Notes under the pieces: model-generated
Database searches by the model: none
What the model saw: only the letters and a program-made list of their open reading frames with translations
Told to the model about the DNA's origin: nothing
In this document: positions 53,915-64,000 of the stretch, in pieces
Layout of the letters: every line of letters starts with the position of its first letter
How positions within the stretch are numbered: the stretch's first letter is position 1
Position numbers and translations under genes: made by a program
NCBI RefSeq assembly: GCF_000285835.1
Contig: NZ_HE978607.1
Span: forward strand, 37,351-101,350
Reading direction: 5' to 3'
DNA: 64,000 nucleotides
Source: Brevibacterium senegalense
GTDB lineage: Bacteria > Actinomycetota > Actinomycetes > Actinomycetales > Brevibacteriaceae

Positions 53915-54622
53915 TCAGGCCCAGTCGACGACCGTGCCCGGCCGGGTGAGGAGCAGGCACGCGTGCGTCGCCGTCTGCTGCTCGGCCGCCTCCCAGCGCT
54001 CCCCACCCGGTCCCGAGGCCGCACTCCCGGAGCCGCGCGGCCGCAGTCGCCCGCCGCGCACCCGGGACACGTCCCAGCCCAGCACCGCGTCGAGGGTGCG
54101 CCCGGTCGCCTTCACGAGCGCCTCCTTGCGCATCCACAGGCGGAGGAACTCGTCCTCAGGCACCGCCGCCGCCCCGACCCGCGCGCGCTCGCGTGGGGTG
54201 AGGACCTGCGGCAGGAGGACGGGATCCAGCGGCGCGCCCCGCGGTTCGACGTCGATCCCGCACGGGCCCGTCGCTGCGACCGCGGCCACCGCACCACCCG
54301 CGTGCGACCAGCTCACCCGGACCCCCTCGCGTCCCACCACGCGGGGGCGCCCGTGGGGGCCTCCGCATGTGGGACACGTCTGGACGAGCTCGACCTCCGT
54401 CGGGTCGCAGTCCGCCAGGCCGGCGACGGCGAGGCGGGCCAGGTGGTGCGCGGCCACGAAGTCCTCGCGCGCGGACGCGTCGTCGAACGCCTCCGCGCGT
54501 CGCCGCTCCGGCGGGGTCAGGAGGGACCGGCCGTCCGGTCCCGCGTCGAGCACCGACCGTGTGGTGCGCAGGAGCACCCGCGCGCGCCCCGCGCTCCCCA
54601 CCCGTGACCGCCGGATCCTCAT
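53915..54622 (-). CDS. Sfp-type 4'-phosphopantetheinyl transferase
   Basis: 235 residues. Transfers the phosphopantetheine arm from CoA to carrier domains. Motifs are SWSHAGGAVAAVA, CGIDVEPRG (magnesium-binding Asp and Glu) and LWMRKEALVKATGRTLD (WxxKEAxxK). The start ATG overlaps the stop of the second ABC gene. This is the broad-range Sfp class rather than the AcpS class, and the nearest carrier domain is that of the membrane NRPS 5 kb away, a likely substrate. Confidence 0.9.
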   Translation of the reverse strand: MRIRRSRVGSAGRARVLLRTTRSVLDAGPDGRSLLTPPERRRAEAFDDASAREDFVAAHHLARLAVAGLADCDPTEVELVQTCPTCGGPHGRPRVVGREGVRVSWSHAGGAVAAVAATGPCGIDVEPRGAPLDPVLLPQVLTPRERARVGAAAVPEDEFLRLWMRKEALVKATGRTLDAVLGWDVSRVRGGRLRPRGSGSAASGPGGERWEAAEQQTATHACLLLTRPGTVVDWA

Positions 54623-56433
54623 CGTGCGGCGAGGCGGGAGAGTGCGCTGCCCGGCGTCTCCAGGAGCCCGCCGGCCCGGCCCTGCTCCACGACCCGCCCG
54701 GCATCGACGACCACGACGTACGCATCCGCGGGGATCCGGTCGACCCGGTGCGTCACCTCGATCGTCGTCCGGCCGGGCCGGCGCCGCTCCAGTGCGCGCC
54801 GCACCTCCTGCGCCGTCTGCTCGTCGAGCTGGCTGAGCGCCTCGTCCAGCACCAGGACCTCCGGCTCCGCGAGCAGCGCCCGGGCCAGCGCCAAGCGCTG
54901 CAGCTGACCGCCGGACACCTCCGTGCGGCCTGCCCGCAGCGGCGCATCGAGGCCGCCGGACAGTCCGGTCGCCCACTCCTCGAGGCCCACGACGCGCAGG
55001 ACGTCGAGCACCTGCGCGTCACTCGCCTCCGGTCGGGCCAGCCGGATGTTCTCCCGCAGCGAGTCGATGAGGAGGGTCGGTCGCTGGTCGACGAGGGCGA
55101 CCCGGCCGCGCAGATCGTCGAGTCGGAGGTCCTGCACCCGCCTGCCTCCCAGTCGCACCTCGCCCTCGTCGGGATCGTGGACGCGCAGCAGCAGGGACGC
55201 GAGCGTCGACTTCCCGCTGCCGGAGACACCCACGAGGGAGGACCACTCCCCCGCGGGGAGATCGACGTCCGCGTCGGCGAGTGCCGGGCGGACAGGCTCC
55301 CCGCTGTCTGCGTCGGCGTGCGCCGGGTACGTGAGCGTCACACCGCGCAGCCGCACCGCGGGACCTGGCCGCTCCGCGTCGCCGGAATCAGCCGCGTGGT
55401 CCGCCCCGACCACGGGCTCCGTGGAGGACCGATCGGAGGCGGGGAGGGCCTCGGGGTCGGCCACCGCCGGCGGCGCCTCGACGATCGCGCGCAGCCGCTG
55501 CGCGGATGCGAGCGCGGCGTCGAGCCCGGCCATGAACGAGTCGACGCCGTTCAGCGGCCCGCGCAGGCCCACCGCGACCGCGAGGGCGAGGACGGCACCC
55601 GCGAGGCCCGCATCCGTGCGCGCCGCGACGACCAGGACGGCGATGAGAGCACCCGCGTGGAGGAGGGCGATCGCCCCCGTGCGTCCGCCCTGCACCAGAC
55701 CGGAGGCCGACCGGGCGCGCACGAGGCGGTCGTCCGCCTCGGCGAGGGAGGCGAGCCTGCGATCCTGCGCGCCTCGCTCCAGAACGTCACGTACGCCGTG
55801 GATGTCGTCGCCCAGGTGCGCGGCGACGGCGGCGCGACCGGCGGCGACGGATCGGGCCGCACGCCACACGGTGCCGGCGGACACGAGCGGGACGAGGAGT
55901 GCGGCGAGCGCGAACGGCACGAGGACGAGTGCCAGGCCCACCGGCGCCGCGGCCCCCAGCCAGACGAGCGCGACCGTGGGGACGACGAAGGCGGAGACCG
56001 CGGGCGGGAAGGTGTGGGCGAAGAAGACCTCGATGCGGTCGATGTCCCGGGTCGCGGTCGCGGTGAGGGCGGCGCCGGCACGTCCGCGGGTGGCGGCGGG
56101 CGCCTGCGGGATGAGCGCGGAGACGAAGAGCTCGCGCAGGCGCTGGAGGGCTGTGAACGCCACCCAGTGGCCCGCGTAGTGCTCCGCGTACCGCAGCGCC
56201 GCCTTGAGCAGCGCGAGGACGATGAGGACGACGGCGAGCTCCCCCGCGCGCACCTCCCCGCCGCCGGCCGCACGGACCAGCGCGGAGGCCATGACCGCGT
56301 ACAGGGCGACGCCCAGCAGCTGCGAGACGATCCGGGCGAGCGCGGATGCCACCAGTGGCATCAGCAGTCCCCAGGTGCGGGACACGAGCCAGCGCACGGT
56401 GTCGACACGGCTCTCCTGCGGCGTCTCCGTCAT
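54619..56433 (-). CDS. ABC exporter half-transporter, CydC-like
   Basis: 604 residues. A type I exporter membrane domain (five to six helices, residues 20-300) with the CydC-like LKAALRYAEHYAGHWVAFTA, then a Pro/Asp-rich linker and a nucleotide-binding domain: Walker A GVSGSGKSTLAS, signature VSGGQLQRLALARAL, Walker B VLVLDEALSQLD and H-loop VTHR. It overlaps its partner gene by four bases and the two surely form a heterodimer. CydDC exports cysteine/glutathione for cytochrome bd assembly, but no cydAB is nearby, so another substrate is possible. Confidence 0.82.
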   Translation of the reverse strand: MTETPQESRVDTVRWLVSRTWGLLMPLVASALARIVSQLLGVALYAVMASALVRAAGGGEVRAGELAVVLIVLALLKAALRYAEHYAGHWVAFTALQRLRELFVSALIPQAPAATRGRAGAALTATATRDIDRIEVFFAHTFPPAVSAFVVPTVALVWLGAAAPVGLALVLVPFALAALLVPLVSAGTVWRAARSVAAGRAAVAAHLGDDIHGVRDVLERGAQDRRLASLAEADDRLVRARSASGLVQGGRTGAIALLHAGALIAVLVVAARTDAGLAGAVLALAVAVGLRGPLNGVDSFMAGLDAALASAQRLRAIVEAPPAVADPEALPASDRSSTEPVVGADHAADSGDAERPGPAVRLRGVTLTYPAHADADSGEPVRPALADADVDLPAGEWSSLVGVSGSGKSTLASLLLRVHDPDEGEVRLGGRRVQDLRLDDLRGRVALVDQRPTLLIDSLRENIRLARPEASDAQVLDVLRVVGLEEWATGLSGGLDAPLRAGRTEVSGGQLQRLALARALLAEPEVLVLDEALSQLDEQTAQEVRRALERRRPGRTTIEVTHRVDRIPADAYVVVVDAGRVVEQGRAGGLLETPGSALSRLAAR

Positions 56434-59400: not shown

Positions 59401-62400
59401 GTGACTGACGAACCCTCACGTCGCCCGCCCGCGCAGACCGCCGGGTCGCTCACGGCCCCGAACGGCGCCGTGCACCCACCGCAGTTCGCCTCCCGCGACC
59501 TCGCCGCTCCCCCGCGCACCCTCATCGACCTCCTCATCGCCACCGCGACCGCGCATCCGGAGGCGCCCGCGATCGACGACGGCACCGTCGTGCTGCGCTA
59601 TCGCGAGGTCCTCGACGTCATCCGCGACCGTGCGCTCGCCCTGGCGCGCGCGGGCGTGGGTCCCGGCGACCGGGTGGGCGTGCGCGTCTCCTCCGGCTCC
59701 ACGGACCTCTACACCGCGATCCTGGGCGTCCTCATGGTAGGTGCGGCGTACGTCCCCGTCGACGTCGACGACCCGGACGAGCGCGCCCGCACCGTCTTCG
59801 AGGAGGCCGACGTCCAGGCGGTCGTGACGGACGGCTTCGCGCTGGAGGTCCGCCACTCCCGCACCGCGGACCAGCAGCCGGAGCTGCGGGCGCCGGGCCT
59901 CGAGGACGATGCGTGGATCATCTTCACCTCCGGCTCGACCGGCAAGCCCAAGGGCGTCGCGGTCTCCCACCGCTCCGCGGCCGCGTTCGTCGACGCGGAG
60001 GCCCGCATCTTCTGCCAGGGCGAGCGCCTGGGCCCGGGCGACCGCGTCCTGGCCGGCCTGTCCGTCGCCTTCGACGCGAGCTGCGAGGAGATGTGGCTGG
60101 CGTGGCGGTCCGGCGCGTGCCTCGTCCCCGCCCCCCGCTCGCTCGTGAAGTCCGGCATGGATCTGGGCCCGTGGCTGGCCGGGCGCGGGATCACCGTCGT
60201 CTCGACCGTCCCCACGCTCGCGTCCCTGTGGCCGGCGGAGACCCTGGAAAACGTCCGCCTCCTCATCTTCGGCGGCGAGGCGTGCCCGCCGGAGCTGGCC
60301 GCCCGCCTCCTGGACGACGACCGGGAGGTGTGGAACACGTACGGCCCCACCGAGGCCACCGTCGTCACGTGCGCCGCACCCCTGGACGGCACGGACCCCG
60401 TGCGGATCGGCCTGCCGCTGGACGGCTGGGACATGGCCGTCGTCGACCCCGCCACCGGGATCCCCGTCGAGGACGGGCGGACCGGTGAGCTCATCATCGG
60501 CGGCGTGGGCCTGGCCCGCTACCTGGACCCGGCGAAGGACGCGGAGAAGTACGCGCCCATGCCCACCCTGGGCTGGGAGCGCGCCTACCGCTCCGGCGAC
60601 CTCGTCGTCATGGACCGCGCGGGCCTCGTCTTCGTGGGCCGCGCGGACGAGCAGGTGAAGCTGGGCGGGCGCCGCATCGAGCTGGGCGAGATCGACGCCG
60701 CCCTCCAGTCCCTGCCCGGCGTCGCCGGCGGTGCCGCCGCCGTCAAGGAGACCGCCGGCGGGATGCAGCTGCTCATCGGCTACCTCGCTCCCGAGGCCGC
60801 GGGCACCGACCGGCGCGAGTCCTGGACGGAGATCCTGCGGGAGTCCCTGCCCCCGGCCCTGGTCCCCCGCCTCGTCCTCGTCGACGATCTGCCGACCAAG
60901 ACCTCGGGCAAGGTCGACCGGAACGCCCTGCCGTGGCCGCTGCCGGGCGAGGAGACGGAGTCCGGCAGCGCGGACGACCTGCCCGCGCACGCGCACTGGT
61001 TCGCGGACCAGTGGCAGGCGGTTCTGGGCTCCTACCCCACGATGGACGCCGACTTCTTCGACTCCGGCGGCGGTTCGCTGGCGGCCGCGCAGCTCATCTC
61101 CCGCCTGCGCGCGCAGCACCCGTCCGTCACGGTGGGCGACGTGTACGCGGCCCCCCGCTTCGGTGCGCTCGTCGCGCTCGCCTCGGACACGGACGAGGCG
61201 GCCCCCGCGCGGCCGCGCCGCACGATCACCCGCACCCGCTACTCGATGCAGACGCTGCAGACCCTGCTGGGCATCCCCGTCCACGTGCTGGCCGCGATGC
61301 GCTGGGTCGTCCTGGCCCTCGTCCTCGTCAACGTCGCCGGTGCCGCCGGCGCGGACGTGCCGACGGTCAGCTGGTGGCTGATCCTCGCTCTCGTCGCCGT
61401 CTTCGTGACCCCGTGGGGCCGCATGCTCATCTCCGCCGGCGTCGCCCGCCTCCTGCTGTCCGGGGTGCGGCCGGGCACGTACCCCCGGTCCGGCTCCGTC
61501 CATCTGCGCCTGTGGCTGGCGGAGCACGTGGCGGACCTGGCCTCGGCGGTGTCCGTCGCCTCCGCCCCGTGGGTGACGTGGTACGCGCGTCTGCTGGGCA
61601 ACTCGGTGGGCCGCGACGTCGACCTGCACTCGATCCCGCCGGTCACCGGCATGCTGACCCTCGACACGGGTGCCGCGATCGAACCCGAGGTCGACCTCAA
61701 GGGCTGGTGGGTGGACGGCGACCTCGTCCACATCGGCCGCATGCGGGTGGGCAAGTACGCGGTCGTGGGCGCCCGCTCGACGCTGCTGCCGGGCGCGCAC
61801 GTGGGGGCCCGGGCCGTCGTCGAGCCCGGCTCCGCCGTCAACGGGCGCGTGCGCAAGGGACAGGTGTACTCCGGGTCCCCGGCCACCCGCGTCCGCCGCG
61901 CCGGGAACGTCGTCCCCGATCCCCCGGCCCGCCGCAGGCGGACGCCGTTCCTGCTCTACGCGATCGGCTCGCTGCTGCACGCGGCGATCCCCCTGGTCGC
62001 CTCGGTCCCCGGTCTCGCCCTGCTGGTGGCGGTGTCCGGTCCGCAGGCGATCGTCAGCCCGCTCACGCTGCTGGCCTGGTCCCCCGTCCTGGGCCTCACC
62101 TGGTTCGCGACCGTCGCCGCGCTCATCGTCGTCTCCGTGCGCACCCTGGCGATCGGCCTGCGCGAGGGCACCGTCCCCGTCCGGTCGTTCGCGGGCTACC
62201 GCGTGTGGGCGACGGAGCGGATCATGGACATGGCCCGGGACCTGCTGTTCCCCCTGTACGCCGGCATGCTCACCCCCGTGTGGCTGCGCCTGCTGGGCGC
62301 GAAGGTGGGTAAGGACGTCGAGGTGTCGACGGTCCTGCTGGTCCCGTCCATGACGACGATCGCAGACGGGGCCTTCTTGGCCGACGACACGATGGTCGCC

Positions 62401-63375
62401 AGCTACGAGCTGCGCAGCGGCTGGATGCGGATCGGCCGGGCGAAGGTGGGCAAGCGCGCTTTCCTGGGCAACTCCGGCATGGCGGCCGCCGGTCGGCGCG
62501 TGCCCAAGAACGCACTCGTCGCGGTGCTGTCCGCCGCACCCGGCAAGGCGAAGAAGGGCACCAGCTGGATCGGCTCGCCGCCGGTCGAGCTGCGCCGGTC
62601 GGAGGTCGAGGCCGACGCGGAGCTCACGTACCGTCCCAGCGCCCGCCTGCGCCGCCTGCGCGGGTTCTGGGAAACGCTGCGTCTGCTGTCCGTCGTGGCC
62701 GGCGCACTCGTCGTCACCGGCGTCATCGGCTCCCTCGTGGGGCTCCACATCGCCTTCGCCTCCCTCTCGACACCGCTGGCCGGCGCACTGGGCATGCTCG
62801 CCGTCTCCGGTGTCGTCATGATGCTCGCCGGCGCCGTGGCGGCCGGGATCGCCGTGGCCGCGAAGTGGATCTGCATCGGCCGGGTCACGGAGGGCGAGCA
62901 CCCCCTGTGGTCCTCGTTCATCTGGCGCAGCGAGCTGGCGGACACGTTCGTCGAGCTCGTCGCCGCCCCGTGGTTCGCGCGCACCGCCGTTGGGACCCCC
63001 GCCCTCGTCTGGTACCTGCGCGCGCTGGGCTCCCGGATCGGTCACGGCGTGTGGTGCGAGACCTACTGGCTGCCGGAGGCCGACCTGGTGCGCCTGGACG
63101 ACAATTCGACCGTCAACCGCGGCTGCGTCGTCCAGACGCACCTCTTCCACGACCGCGTCATGAGCCTCGACACCGTCACGCTCGACGCCGGCGCCACCCT
63201 GGGCCCCAACAGCGTCATCCTGCCGGCGGCCCACCTGGGCGACGCCGCGACCGTGGGGCCGGCGAGCCTCGTCATGCGCGGCGAGTCCGTGCCGGCCCAC
63301 GCGTACTTCATGGGCAACCCGGTCGTACCCTGGATCGATGCACCCGCACTGCCCGAGGAGGCCTTGAGTCGATGA
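59401..63375 (+). CDS. Pls/PosA-family membrane non-ribosomal peptide synthetase
   Basis: 1324 residues, nearly the length of epsilon-poly-L-lysine synthetase (about 1320). Adenylation domain about 40-515: IIFTSGSTGKPKG (A3), AFDASCEEMW (A4), NTYGPTEATV (A5), TSGKVDR (A10). Carrier domain about 530-590 with DSGGGSLAAAQL, phosphopantetheine Ser559. Then six membrane helices in three pairs (about 633-678, 851-914, 1094-1160), each pair followed by a left-handed hexapeptide-type domain, the architecture known for Pls. Specificity residues read by hand against PheA: D225 A226 E229 S268 I289 G291 T313 V321 V322 K504, similar to lysine-activating domains. No thioesterase or condensation domain is present. 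GTG start with AGGAG ten bases upstream; the stop overlaps the next ATG. Confidence 0.9.
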   Translation: MTDEPSRRPPAQTAGSLTAPNGAVHPPQFASRDLAAPPRTLIDLLIATATAHPEAPAIDDGTVVLRYREVLDVIRDRALALARAGVGPGDRVGVRVSSGSTDLYTAILGVLMVGAAYVPVDVDDPDERARTVFEEADVQAVVTDGFALEVRHSRTADQQPELRAPGLEDDAWIIFTSGSTGKPKGVAVSHRSAAAFVDAEARIFCQGERLGPGDRVLAGLSVAFDASCEEMWLAWRSGACLVPAPRSLVKSGMDLGPWLAGRGITVVSTVPTLASLWPAETLENVRLLIFGGEACPPELAARLLDDDREVWNTYGPTEATVVTCAAPLDGTDPVRIGLPLDGWDMAVVDPATGIPVEDGRTGELIIGGVGLARYLDPAKDAEKYAPMPTLGWERAYRSGDLVVMDRAGLVFVGRADEQVKLGGRRIELGEIDAALQSLPGVAGGAAAVKETAGGMQLLIGYLAPEAAGTDRRESWTEILRESLPPALVPRLVLVDDLPTKTSGKVDRNALPWPLPGEETESGSADDLPAHAHWFADQWQAVLGSYPTMDADFFDSGGGSLAAAQLISRLRAQHPSVTVGDVYAAPRFGALVALASDTDEAAPARPRRTITRTRYSMQTLQTLLGIPVHVLAAMRWVVLALVLVNVAGAAGADVPTVSWWLILALVAVFVTPWGRMLISAGVARLLLSGVRPGTYPRSGSVHLRLWLAEHVADLASAVSVASAPWVTWYARLLGNSVGRDVDLHSIPPVTGMLTLDTGAAIEPEVDLKGWWVDGDLVHIGRMRVGKYAVVGARSTLLPGAHVGARAVVEPGSAVNGRVRKGQVYSGSPATRVRRAGNVVPDPPARRRRTPFLLYAIGSLLHAAIPLVASVPGLALLVAVSGPQAIVSPLTLLAWSPVLGLTWFATVAALIVVSVRTLAIGLREGTVPVRSFAGYRVWATERIMDMARDLLFPLYAGMLTPVWLRLLGAKVGKDVEVSTVLLVPSMTTIADGAFLADDTMVASYELRSGWMRIGRAKVGKRAFLGNSGMAAAGRRVPKNALVAVLSAAPGKAKKGTSWIGSPPVELRRSEVEADAELTYRPSARLRRLRGFWETLRLLSVVAGALVVTGVIGSLVGLHIAFASLSTPLAGALGMLAVSGVVMMLAGAVAAGIAVAAKWICIGRVTEGEHPLWSSFIWRSELADTFVELVAAPWFARTAVGTPALVWYLRALGSRIGHGVWCETYWLPEADLVRLDDNSTVNRGCVVQTHLFHDRVMSLDTVTLDAGATLGPNSVILPAAHLGDAATVGPASLVMRGESVPAHAYFMGNPVVPWIDAPALPEEALSR

Positions 63376-64000
63376 CCGTGTTCGACCCCTACACACCCCA
63401 GTCGGGCAGCGCCGACTTCACCGTCGAGCACTACGACCTCGACCTCGACTACCGCCTGGGCCCCAATCGTCTGGCCGGCACCGCGACCCTGACCGTGCGG
63501 GTCCTCGAGGACCTGCGCGCGCTCACGCTGGACCTGGTGGGTCTGGGAGTCGACCGGGTGCGGGTCGAGGGGCAGCGCGCCCGGTACCGGCAGCGTGCCG
63601 GCCGTCTGCTCGTGACCCTGCCGGCGCAGCAGGCCGCGGGCGACCGGCTCACGGTCGAGGTCCGCTATTCCGGCACCCCCGCTCCCCGGATGGGTGCGTG
63701 GGGCGATGTGGGCTGGGAGGAGCTGAATGACGGATCGCTGGTCGCCGGCCAGCCCAATGGCTCCGCCACCTGGTACCCGGTCAACGACCATCCGGCGCAC
63801 AAGGCGACCTACCGCATCTCCGTCCTCACCGATGCGGATTACACCGTCATCGCCAACGGTCGGCTGGCCTCCACGACGCGCGCGTCCCGCGGGACGCGGT
63901 GGGAGTGGGTCTCCGACGTCCCGCTGGCCCCGTACGTGGCGAGCGTCCAGATCGGTCGCTTCAAGCTGTCGGATCTGCCCGGCGACGGCGAGGTGCCCCA
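63372..64000 (+). CDS. M1-family zinc aminopeptidase (partial, N-terminal part)
   Basis: 209 codons are visible before the window ends. The N-terminal beta-sandwich domain of M1 peptidases is clear: VEHYDLDLDYRLGPNRLAGT, then GQPNGSATWYPVNDHPAHKA and TYRISVLTDADYTVIANGRL, and APYVASVQIGRF. The zinc motif HEXXH would lie further downstream, so catalytic competence cannot be judged. No signal peptide at the ATG. The ATG overlaps the synthetase stop (ATGA), so the two proteins are made together; a role in trimming or degrading the synthetase product is an attractive inference. Confidence 0.88.
   Translation, partial: MTVFDPYTPQSGSADFTVEHYDLDLDYRLGPNRLAGTATLTVRVLEDLRALTLDLVGLGVDRVRVEGQRARYRQRAGRLLVTLPAQQAAGDRLTVEVRYSGTPAPRMGAWGDVGWEELNDGSLVAGQPNGSATWYPVNDHPAHKATYRISVLTDADYTVIANGRLASTTRASRGTRWEWVSDVPLAPYVASVQIGRFKLSDLPGDGEVP

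What the first reader, a model, noticed from the sequence alone, without database searches (positions are those of the whole stretch)
59401..63375. Possible poly-lysine-type synthetase outside the known producers
The protein has the full Pls layout: one adenylation domain, one carrier domain, six membrane helices and three tandem hexapeptide-type domains, with no thioesterase. My manual mapping of the ten specificity positions gives D-A-E-S-I-G-T-V-V-K. The acidic residue at the 239-equivalent (E229) suits a basic side chain, and the first six letters agree with what I recall for the lysine module of bacitracin synthetase. The product may be epsilon-poly-lysine or a related cationic homopolymer (ornithine, diaminobutyrate, diaminopropionate). 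Domain layout is seen; substrate is inference.
Basis: partly seen in the sequence, partly recalled or inferred. Interest (0 to 1): 0.85.

Follow-up and report, generated by a model that had tools for sequence, protein, structure and literature searches.

The report
Brevibacterium epsilon-polylysine synthetase with its peptidase
This is a Brevibacterium gene for the enzyme that strings lysines into the antimicrobial polymer epsilon-polylysine, sitting directly next to a gene for a matching polymer-cutting enzyme; such genes are already reported for this genus, so it is a well-supported but ordinary find.

Summary
An open frame from GTG 59401 to TGA 63375 (+) encodes 1324 aa with one adenylation domain, one carrier domain, three hydrophobic helix pairs and three mutually homologous beta-helix domains. 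It scores 662 bits (cut-off 423) for the Pls/PosA family. The next gene, an M1 zinc peptidase, overlaps the stop by 4 nt, as in an annotated Streptomyces pls pair. Epsilon-poly-L-lysine is the most likely product (about 0.9); nothing was assayed.

'Outside the known producers' does not hold. The genome is Brevibacterium, judged by 98% protein identity. Jiang et al. 2021 reported pls in 14 of 15 Brevibacterium isolates and confirmed the Corynebacterium variabile enzyme. Here 44 of 57 genomes of the genus exceed the family cut-off.

Modest extras: the window's peptidase shows no export leader, whereas the two Streptomyces copies do; among C1-C3 only C3 carries an invariant QTHL(F/Y)xDR motif; three genomes of the genus hold a second, divergent synthetase. 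New member of a known kind.

The parts
59401..63375 (+). pls: epsilon-poly-L-lysine synthetase-type gene, 1324 aa, GTG start
   Evidence: TIGR02353 662 bits, cut-off 423; best solved relative 7wew_A, 621 bits
59488..60948 (+). adenylation domain, residues 30-516
   Evidence: phmmer alignment to 7wew; 63.8% identity over 481 columns
60073..60912 (+). specificity pocket residues D225 A226 E229 S268 I289 G291 T313 V321 V322 K504 = DAESIGTVVK
   Evidence: same code in 114 of 119 aligned rows, 7wew included; coordinates
61003..61179 (+). carrier (thiolation) domain, residues 535-593; phosphopantetheine serine S559 in GGGS (61075-61077)
   Evidence: PF00550 28.8 bits, cut-off 20.8; GGGS in each of the 12 commonest carrier-motif variants, the only ones printed
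61273..61434 (+). hydrophobic (transmembrane) pair 1, residues 625-678
   Evidence: Kyte-Doolittle scan; helices in the model
61459..61923 (+). C1 domain, residues 687-841, beta-helix
   Evidence: PF00132 Hexapep; hhalign C1-C2 and C1-C3 99.7%; model
61951..62160 (+). hydrophobic (transmembrane) pair 2, residues 851-920
62161..62601 (+). C2 domain, residues 921-1067
   Evidence: hhalign to C1 and C3; model
62683..62856 (+). hydrophobic (transmembrane) pair 3, residues 1095-1152
62875..63339 (+). C3 domain, residues 1159-1313
   Evidence: hhalign to C1 and C2; model
63133..63156 (+). QTHLFHDR, residues 1245-1252, invariant QTHL(F/Y)xDR in C3: proposed catalytic motif of peptide-bond formation (inference)
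   Evidence: present in 118 of 118 family rows with letters there and in 4 of 4 further paralogs
63372..63998 (+). 5' part of the pldII-like M1 zinc peptidase gene (437 aa in all; runs off the window, complete in L004 6223-7533), ATGA overlap with the pls stop
   Evidence: PF17900 and PF01433; HELSH motif
53915..54622 (-). phosphopantetheinyl transferase of the ACPS superfamily, 235 aa, candidate activator of the carrier domain; its start overlaps the end of a CydC-like gene
   Evidence: PF01648 42.8 bits, cut-off 25, on the longer frame 53915-54976; start at 54622 chosen; no NCBIfam match at E 1e-8; second ACPS-family gene elsewhere in the genome

Best explanation
The gene is pls: a membrane-bound, single-module synthetase that makes epsilon-poly-L-lysine. 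By homology, the A domain activates L-lysine as the adenylate through D225 (alpha-amine) and E229 (epsilon-amine) and loads it on S559 of the carrier domain, once that serine carries phosphopantetheine (a candidate transferase lies at 53915-54622). The membrane part, three helix pairs with C1-C3 packed as one pseudo-trimer of beta-helices, joins the epsilon-amine of one lysine to the carboxyl of the next without condensation or thioesterase domains. I propose that the site is in C3 around H1247, since only C3 has the invariant QTHL(F/Y)xDR motif. The coupled M1 peptidase is the pldII counterpart and limits or clears the polymer. Shown here: family, pocket identity, layout, gene overlap. Inferred from characterised relatives: substrate, product, chain growth, peptidase role. 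Inferred by me: H1247 as catalyst and a cytosolic peptidase.
For: TIGR02353 662 bits; over the cut-off in only 1 of the 14 control genomes. 7wew is the top solved relative at 621 bits. The pocket is identical to that of 7wew and is shared by 112 of 117 loci; the five that differ are four distant paralogs with other codes and one truncated locus. Of the 120 protein relatives listed (of 7989 found), 118 share it and two differ by one letter. An M1 gene lies on the same strand in 113 of 119 loci, two of which are the window's own region; a start codon at a 4-nt overlap is possible in 48 of 119. The Streptomyces record annotated 'epsilon-poly-L-lysine synthase Pls' has the same gene pair with a 4-nt overlap. 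No TIGR00238 match in the genome. Published: the C. [quoted passage not shown] coelicolor (PMC8117764).
Against: No activity or product was measured. C. variabile made no detectable polymer in its own background, nor did C. glutamicum expressing the gene, so the gene may be silent here too. Ten-letter codes do not always fix the substrate: the ornithine enzyme PosA shares D, E, G, T, V and K. The M1 peptidase lacks the leader seen in the two Streptomyces copies, so its role could differ from that of PldII.
Confidence: 0.9

Rival explanations
1. The enzyme makes a homopolymer of another diamino acid (ornithine, 2,4-diaminobutyrate or 2,3-diaminopropionate).
For: Same family and layout; E229 suits any terminal amine; PosA activates lysine weakly, so pockets of this family can be loose.
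Against: The code differs from PosA (DMEHNGTVSK) and from the diaminobutyrate-type locus L119 (DFECLSAVTK). Position 226 is alanine, which the PosA paper associates with lysine enzymes. The downstream neighbour is an M1 peptidase, not a diaminobutyrate transaminase and aspartate kinase.
Confidence: 0.05
2. The polymer is made of beta-lysine.
For: A Pls homologue with an adjacent lysine 2,3-aminomutase gene is reported to go with epsilon-poly-beta-lysine (cited in PMC10522769).
Against: No TIGR00238 match in the window's genome (99% complete), while the same search rings in 9 of 14 control genomes (that TIGR00238 is the lysine 2,3-aminomutase family is recalled). Pocket identical to that of an alpha-lysine enzyme.
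Confidence: 0.01
3. The gene is silent or decaying and makes nothing in this organism.
For: C. variabile made no polymer in culture; 13 of 57 genomes of the genus have no match over the family cut-off.
Against: Open frame, pocket, carrier serine and C3 motif are intact and the gene pair is kept. The seven named Brevibacterium loci L034-L040 are 68-98% identical and share the pocket.
Confidence: 0.04

Closest known systems
epsilon-poly-L-lysine synthetase Pls of Streptomyces albulus, with PldII
   Same: Domain layout; 10 of 10 pocket residues (7wew); peptidase gene directly downstream (coupling stated for S. albulus in PMC9223678, passages seen; seen in the Streptomyces record L114)
   Different: 63.8% identity in the A domain and 49% overall to the annotated Streptomyces Pls L114; the peptidase lacks the arginine-pair hydrophobic leader of the two Streptomyces copies
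Corynebacterium variabile Pls and Brevibacterium Pls homologues (Jiang et al. 2021, PMC8117764, parts 1-3 of 4 read)
   Same: Pls in 14 of 15 Brevibacterium isolates; pockets reported as identical or highly similar to confirmed Pls; pls-peptidase operon reported for C. variabile
delta-poly-L-ornithine synthetase PosA (PMC10522769, parts 1-3 of 8, section 13 and passages read)
   Same: A-T plus membrane part, modelled with three beta-helices
   Different: Pocket DMEHNGTVSK; single-gene operon; Acinetobacter baumannii records in the plasmid collection encode a protein about 31% identical to the window's (listing)
gamma-poly-diaminobutyrate-type synthetase (L119, Streptomyces sp. NBC_01527)
   Same: TIGR02353 548 bits; C3 motif QTHLFEDR
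   Different: Code DFECLSAVTK, 32% identity; followed by diaminobutyrate transaminase and aspartate kinase genes. That it makes poly-diaminobutyrate is inferred from this context and PMC8117764 Fig. 1 legend

Membership tests
epsilon-poly-L-lysine synthetase (Pls) | Score above the curated cut-off of TIGR02353 (Pls/PosA) | tested here: met
   662 bits, cut-off 423.1
epsilon-poly-L-lysine synthetase (Pls) | One A and one T domain, no condensation and no thioesterase domain | tested here: met
   Pfam lists AMP-binding, PP-binding and Hexapep only
epsilon-poly-L-lysine synthetase (Pls) | Six transmembrane helices in three pairs with tandem domains C1-C3 | tested here: met
   Hydropathy, hhalign among C1-C3, model; membrane insertion itself not shown
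epsilon-poly-L-lysine synthetase (Pls) | Lysine pocket as in confirmed Pls | tested here: met
   10 of 10 identical to 7wew
epsilon-poly-L-lysine synthetase (Pls) | Coupled pldII-type M1 peptidase gene | tested here: met
   4-nt overlap, M1 domains
epsilon-poly-L-lysine synthetase (Pls) | Makes epsilon-poly-L-lysine | not testable with these tools
   needs enzyme assay and mass spectrometry
delta-poly-L-ornithine synthetase (PosA) | Pocket DMEHNGTVSK | tested here: not met
   DAESIGTVVK; PosA code from the paper
poly-diaminobutyrate synthetase | Pocket and transaminase/aspartate kinase neighbours as in L119 | tested here: not met
epsilon-poly-beta-lysine synthetase | Lysine 2,3-aminomutase gene beside the synthetase | tested here: not met
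   no TIGR00238 match in the genome
PldII (epsilon-polylysine-degrading enzyme) | M1 zinc peptidase with HExxH and a downstream Glu | tested here: met
   PF01433 88.2 bits; HExxH-x(17-19)-E in 113 of 113 copies
PldII (epsilon-polylysine-degrading enzyme) | Acts outside the membrane, as stated for S. albulus | tested here: inconclusive
   no hydrophobic leader in the window copy; location itself not testable here
PldII (epsilon-polylysine-degrading enzyme) | Degrades epsilon-polylysine | not testable with these tools
   needs an enzyme assay

The most novel reading that the evidence does not exclude
Outside Streptomyces the pls-peptidase pair may work differently. The coupled peptidase shows no export leader in the window copy, and a crude hydropathy scan saw one in only 2 of 113 copies, both Streptomyces, so it may be a cytosolic guard that destroys polymer failing to leave the cell, or that keeps chains short, rather than an external clearing enzyme. 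Chain growth itself may rest on one retained active site (H1247 in C3) of a degenerate beta-helix pseudo-trimer.
Probability: 0.3. Interest if true: 0.4.

Novelty: new member of a known kind. Interest (0 to 1): 0.15.

Why it matters
Epsilon-polylysine is a commercial food preservative made with Streptomyces (PMC8117764). A Brevibacterium pls gene with an intact lysine pocket and peptidase partner fits the published idea that cheese and skin coryneforms carry this pathway, and adds one more non-filamentous candidate source. The single invariant C3 motif and the leaderless peptidase give two inexpensive tests of how chains are joined and how the cell protects itself.

Tried and rejected
Considered and rejected: ornithine or diaminobutyrate as substrate (codes and neighbours differ); beta-lysine; recent acquisition by this strain (the 28 rows of the genus form one clade, SH-aLRT 100). 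An older transfer is not rejected: the Brevibacterium clade lies among Micrococcaceae rows, beside Kocuria (support 88), six rows from other families of the same order (L005, L006, L009, L010, L020, L021) branch outside the group that holds the Mycobacteriales rows, and 0 of 3 genomes from other genera of the family exceed the cut-off. The tree is the quick method, and the tool warned of long branches.

Rows dropped before counts: L001 and L004 are the window's own region and were left out of the pocket alignment but counted in the peptidase tally. L025 lacks the A domain. The tree left out 7wew and L025. The peptidase distance could be computed for 111 of 113 copies. The loci are not independent (for example L012 and L035, or L017 and L034, are near-identical). 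The structure alignment used 42 of 48 rows picked for under 80% mutual identity.
Full report

2. Substrate pocket. The closest solved relative is 7wew, the A domain of an epsilon-poly-L-lysine synthase (621 bits; named as the epsilon-PL synthetase structure in PMC10522769), 63.8% identical over 481 columns. Of 119 aligned rows (window, 7wew and 117 loci), 114 have this code. The rest are L117 and L119 (DFECLSAVTK), L118 (DFEYLGTVTK), L121 (DLEDIGSVVK) and L025, which lacks the region. Of the 120 proteins listed by the large protein search (7989 with E up to 0.001 among 7995 scored; only the best 120 listed), 118 have it and two differ by one letter. In PosA the residues equivalent to D225 and E229 are essential; the residue equivalent to A226 affects which side-chain length fits, its change to alanine raising lysine use nearly tenfold, and alanine is noted for lysine enzymes.

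3. Neighbour. The next gene starts at 63372 and overlaps the synthetase stop as ATGA. It is complete outside the window in L004 (6223-7533): 437 aa, an M1 peptidase with HELSH. An M1 gene lies on the same strand in 113 of 119 loci (111 of 117 without the window's own two); the six without are L009 and L117-L121. In five of the 113 (Tsukamurella and Williamsia) it starts 297-2106 bases away. A Streptomyces plasmid record annotated 'epsilon-poly-L-lysine synthase Pls' has the same pair, overlapping by 4 nt. In S. albulus the pair is stated to be translationally coupled and PldII to lie outside the membrane (passages of PMC9223678). The window copy shows no hydrophobic leader. In a scan of the 50 residues before the conserved fold, the two highest values among 113 copies belong to L114 and L116, both Streptomyces, which have an arginine pair followed by a hydrophobic stretch (1.59 and 1.36); the next is 1.11 and lies in sequence upstream of the likely start. 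The Kitasatospora copy (L115) has none. This test is crude: start codons were not curated and no signal-peptide predictor was run.

4. Organism and spread. I take it for Brevibacterium because its protein is 98% identical to that on a Brevibacterium senegalense MAG contig and 83% to that of B. jeotgali. In its genus, 44 of 57 genomes (own included) exceed the family cut-off and 13 do not; five of the 44 do so only with neighbouring pieces in the same frame counted, and G030 only through the divergent copy. Of the three genomes from other genera of the family, 0 of 3 do. A quick tree of 117 rows puts the 28 rows of the genus in one clade at SH-aLRT 100, beside Kocuria (support 88) and among Micrococcaceae. 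Within the genus this fits vertical descent. Deeper down the tree does not simply follow taxonomy: six rows from other families of the same order branch outside the group that includes Mycobacteriales, so older transfer, loss or duplication is possible.

5. What was known. Jiang et al. 2021 (PMC8117764, parts 1-3 of 4 read) found pls in 14 of 15 Brevibacterium isolates from cheese and skin, reported identical or highly similar pockets, and showed that the C. variabile gene makes epsilon-polylysine of 26-35 residues in S. coelicolor, while neither C. variabile nor C. glutamicum carrying the gene made any in culture. Two later Brevibacterium genome papers list an epsilon-poly-L-lysine cluster (passages only). 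The claim of a find outside the known producers therefore fails if 'producers' means carriers. That any Brevibacterium makes the polymer I did not find reported; I saw the listings of searches and the papers and passages named here, in an open-licence library only.

6. Mechanism. Lysine is adenylated, loaded on S559 and polymerised by the membrane part. A phosphopantetheinyl transferase of the ACPS superfamily lies in the window at 53915-54622 on the other strand (42.8 bits, cut-off 25; no NCBIfam match at E 1e-8); a second ACPS-family gene is elsewhere. The motif QTHL(F/Y)xDR (residues 1245-1252) occurs in C3 in 118 of 118 family rows with letters there and in four further paralogs. C1 and C2 have other residues at the aligned place in the 18 rows printed with those regions. 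I infer that C3 holds the bond-forming site of a degenerate pseudo-trimer. That is a proposal: no catalytic test was possible and model coordinates were not at hand.

7. Verdict. A well-supported epsilon-poly-L-lysine synthetase with its peptidase, in a genus where it is already reported: new member of a known kind, low interest, with two small testable extras.

Noticed in passing
L122 (G030), L123 (G050), L125 (G020): Three genomes of the window's genus carry a second-type, divergent synthetase (about 44-45% identical to the window's, code DAESIGTVIK or DAESIGSVIK) with no M1 peptidase hit in the fetched stretch; in G030 it is the only copy over the cut-off, and the L125 copy has an in-frame stop.
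   Followed up: partly
L123:2848-4203 (-): An ORF near the second synthetase of G050 has an ACPS-like stretch at 24.0 bits, just under the 25-bit cut-off; possibly a dedicated phosphopantetheinyl transferase.
   Followed up: no
window 53915-54622 (-): Phosphopantetheinyl transferase whose start overlaps the end of a CydC-like ABC transporter gene (CydC and CydD models match below their cut-offs); candidate activator of the pls carrier domain.
   Followed up: partly
window 63372 onward and L004:6223-7533: The window's M1 peptidase lacks the arginine-pair hydrophobic leader found in the two Streptomyces copies L114 and L116.
   Followed up: partly
G064: C14:1819-3177, C1:867334-868701 and others: One genome of the same order shows, besides a full-length copy, several partial matches to the Pls/PosA family on two contigs.
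   Followed up: no
L124 (G068): A same-order genome has a distant synthetase (33% identical) with code DFEYNGTVTK, a pocket unlike that of the lysine enzymes.
   Followed up: no
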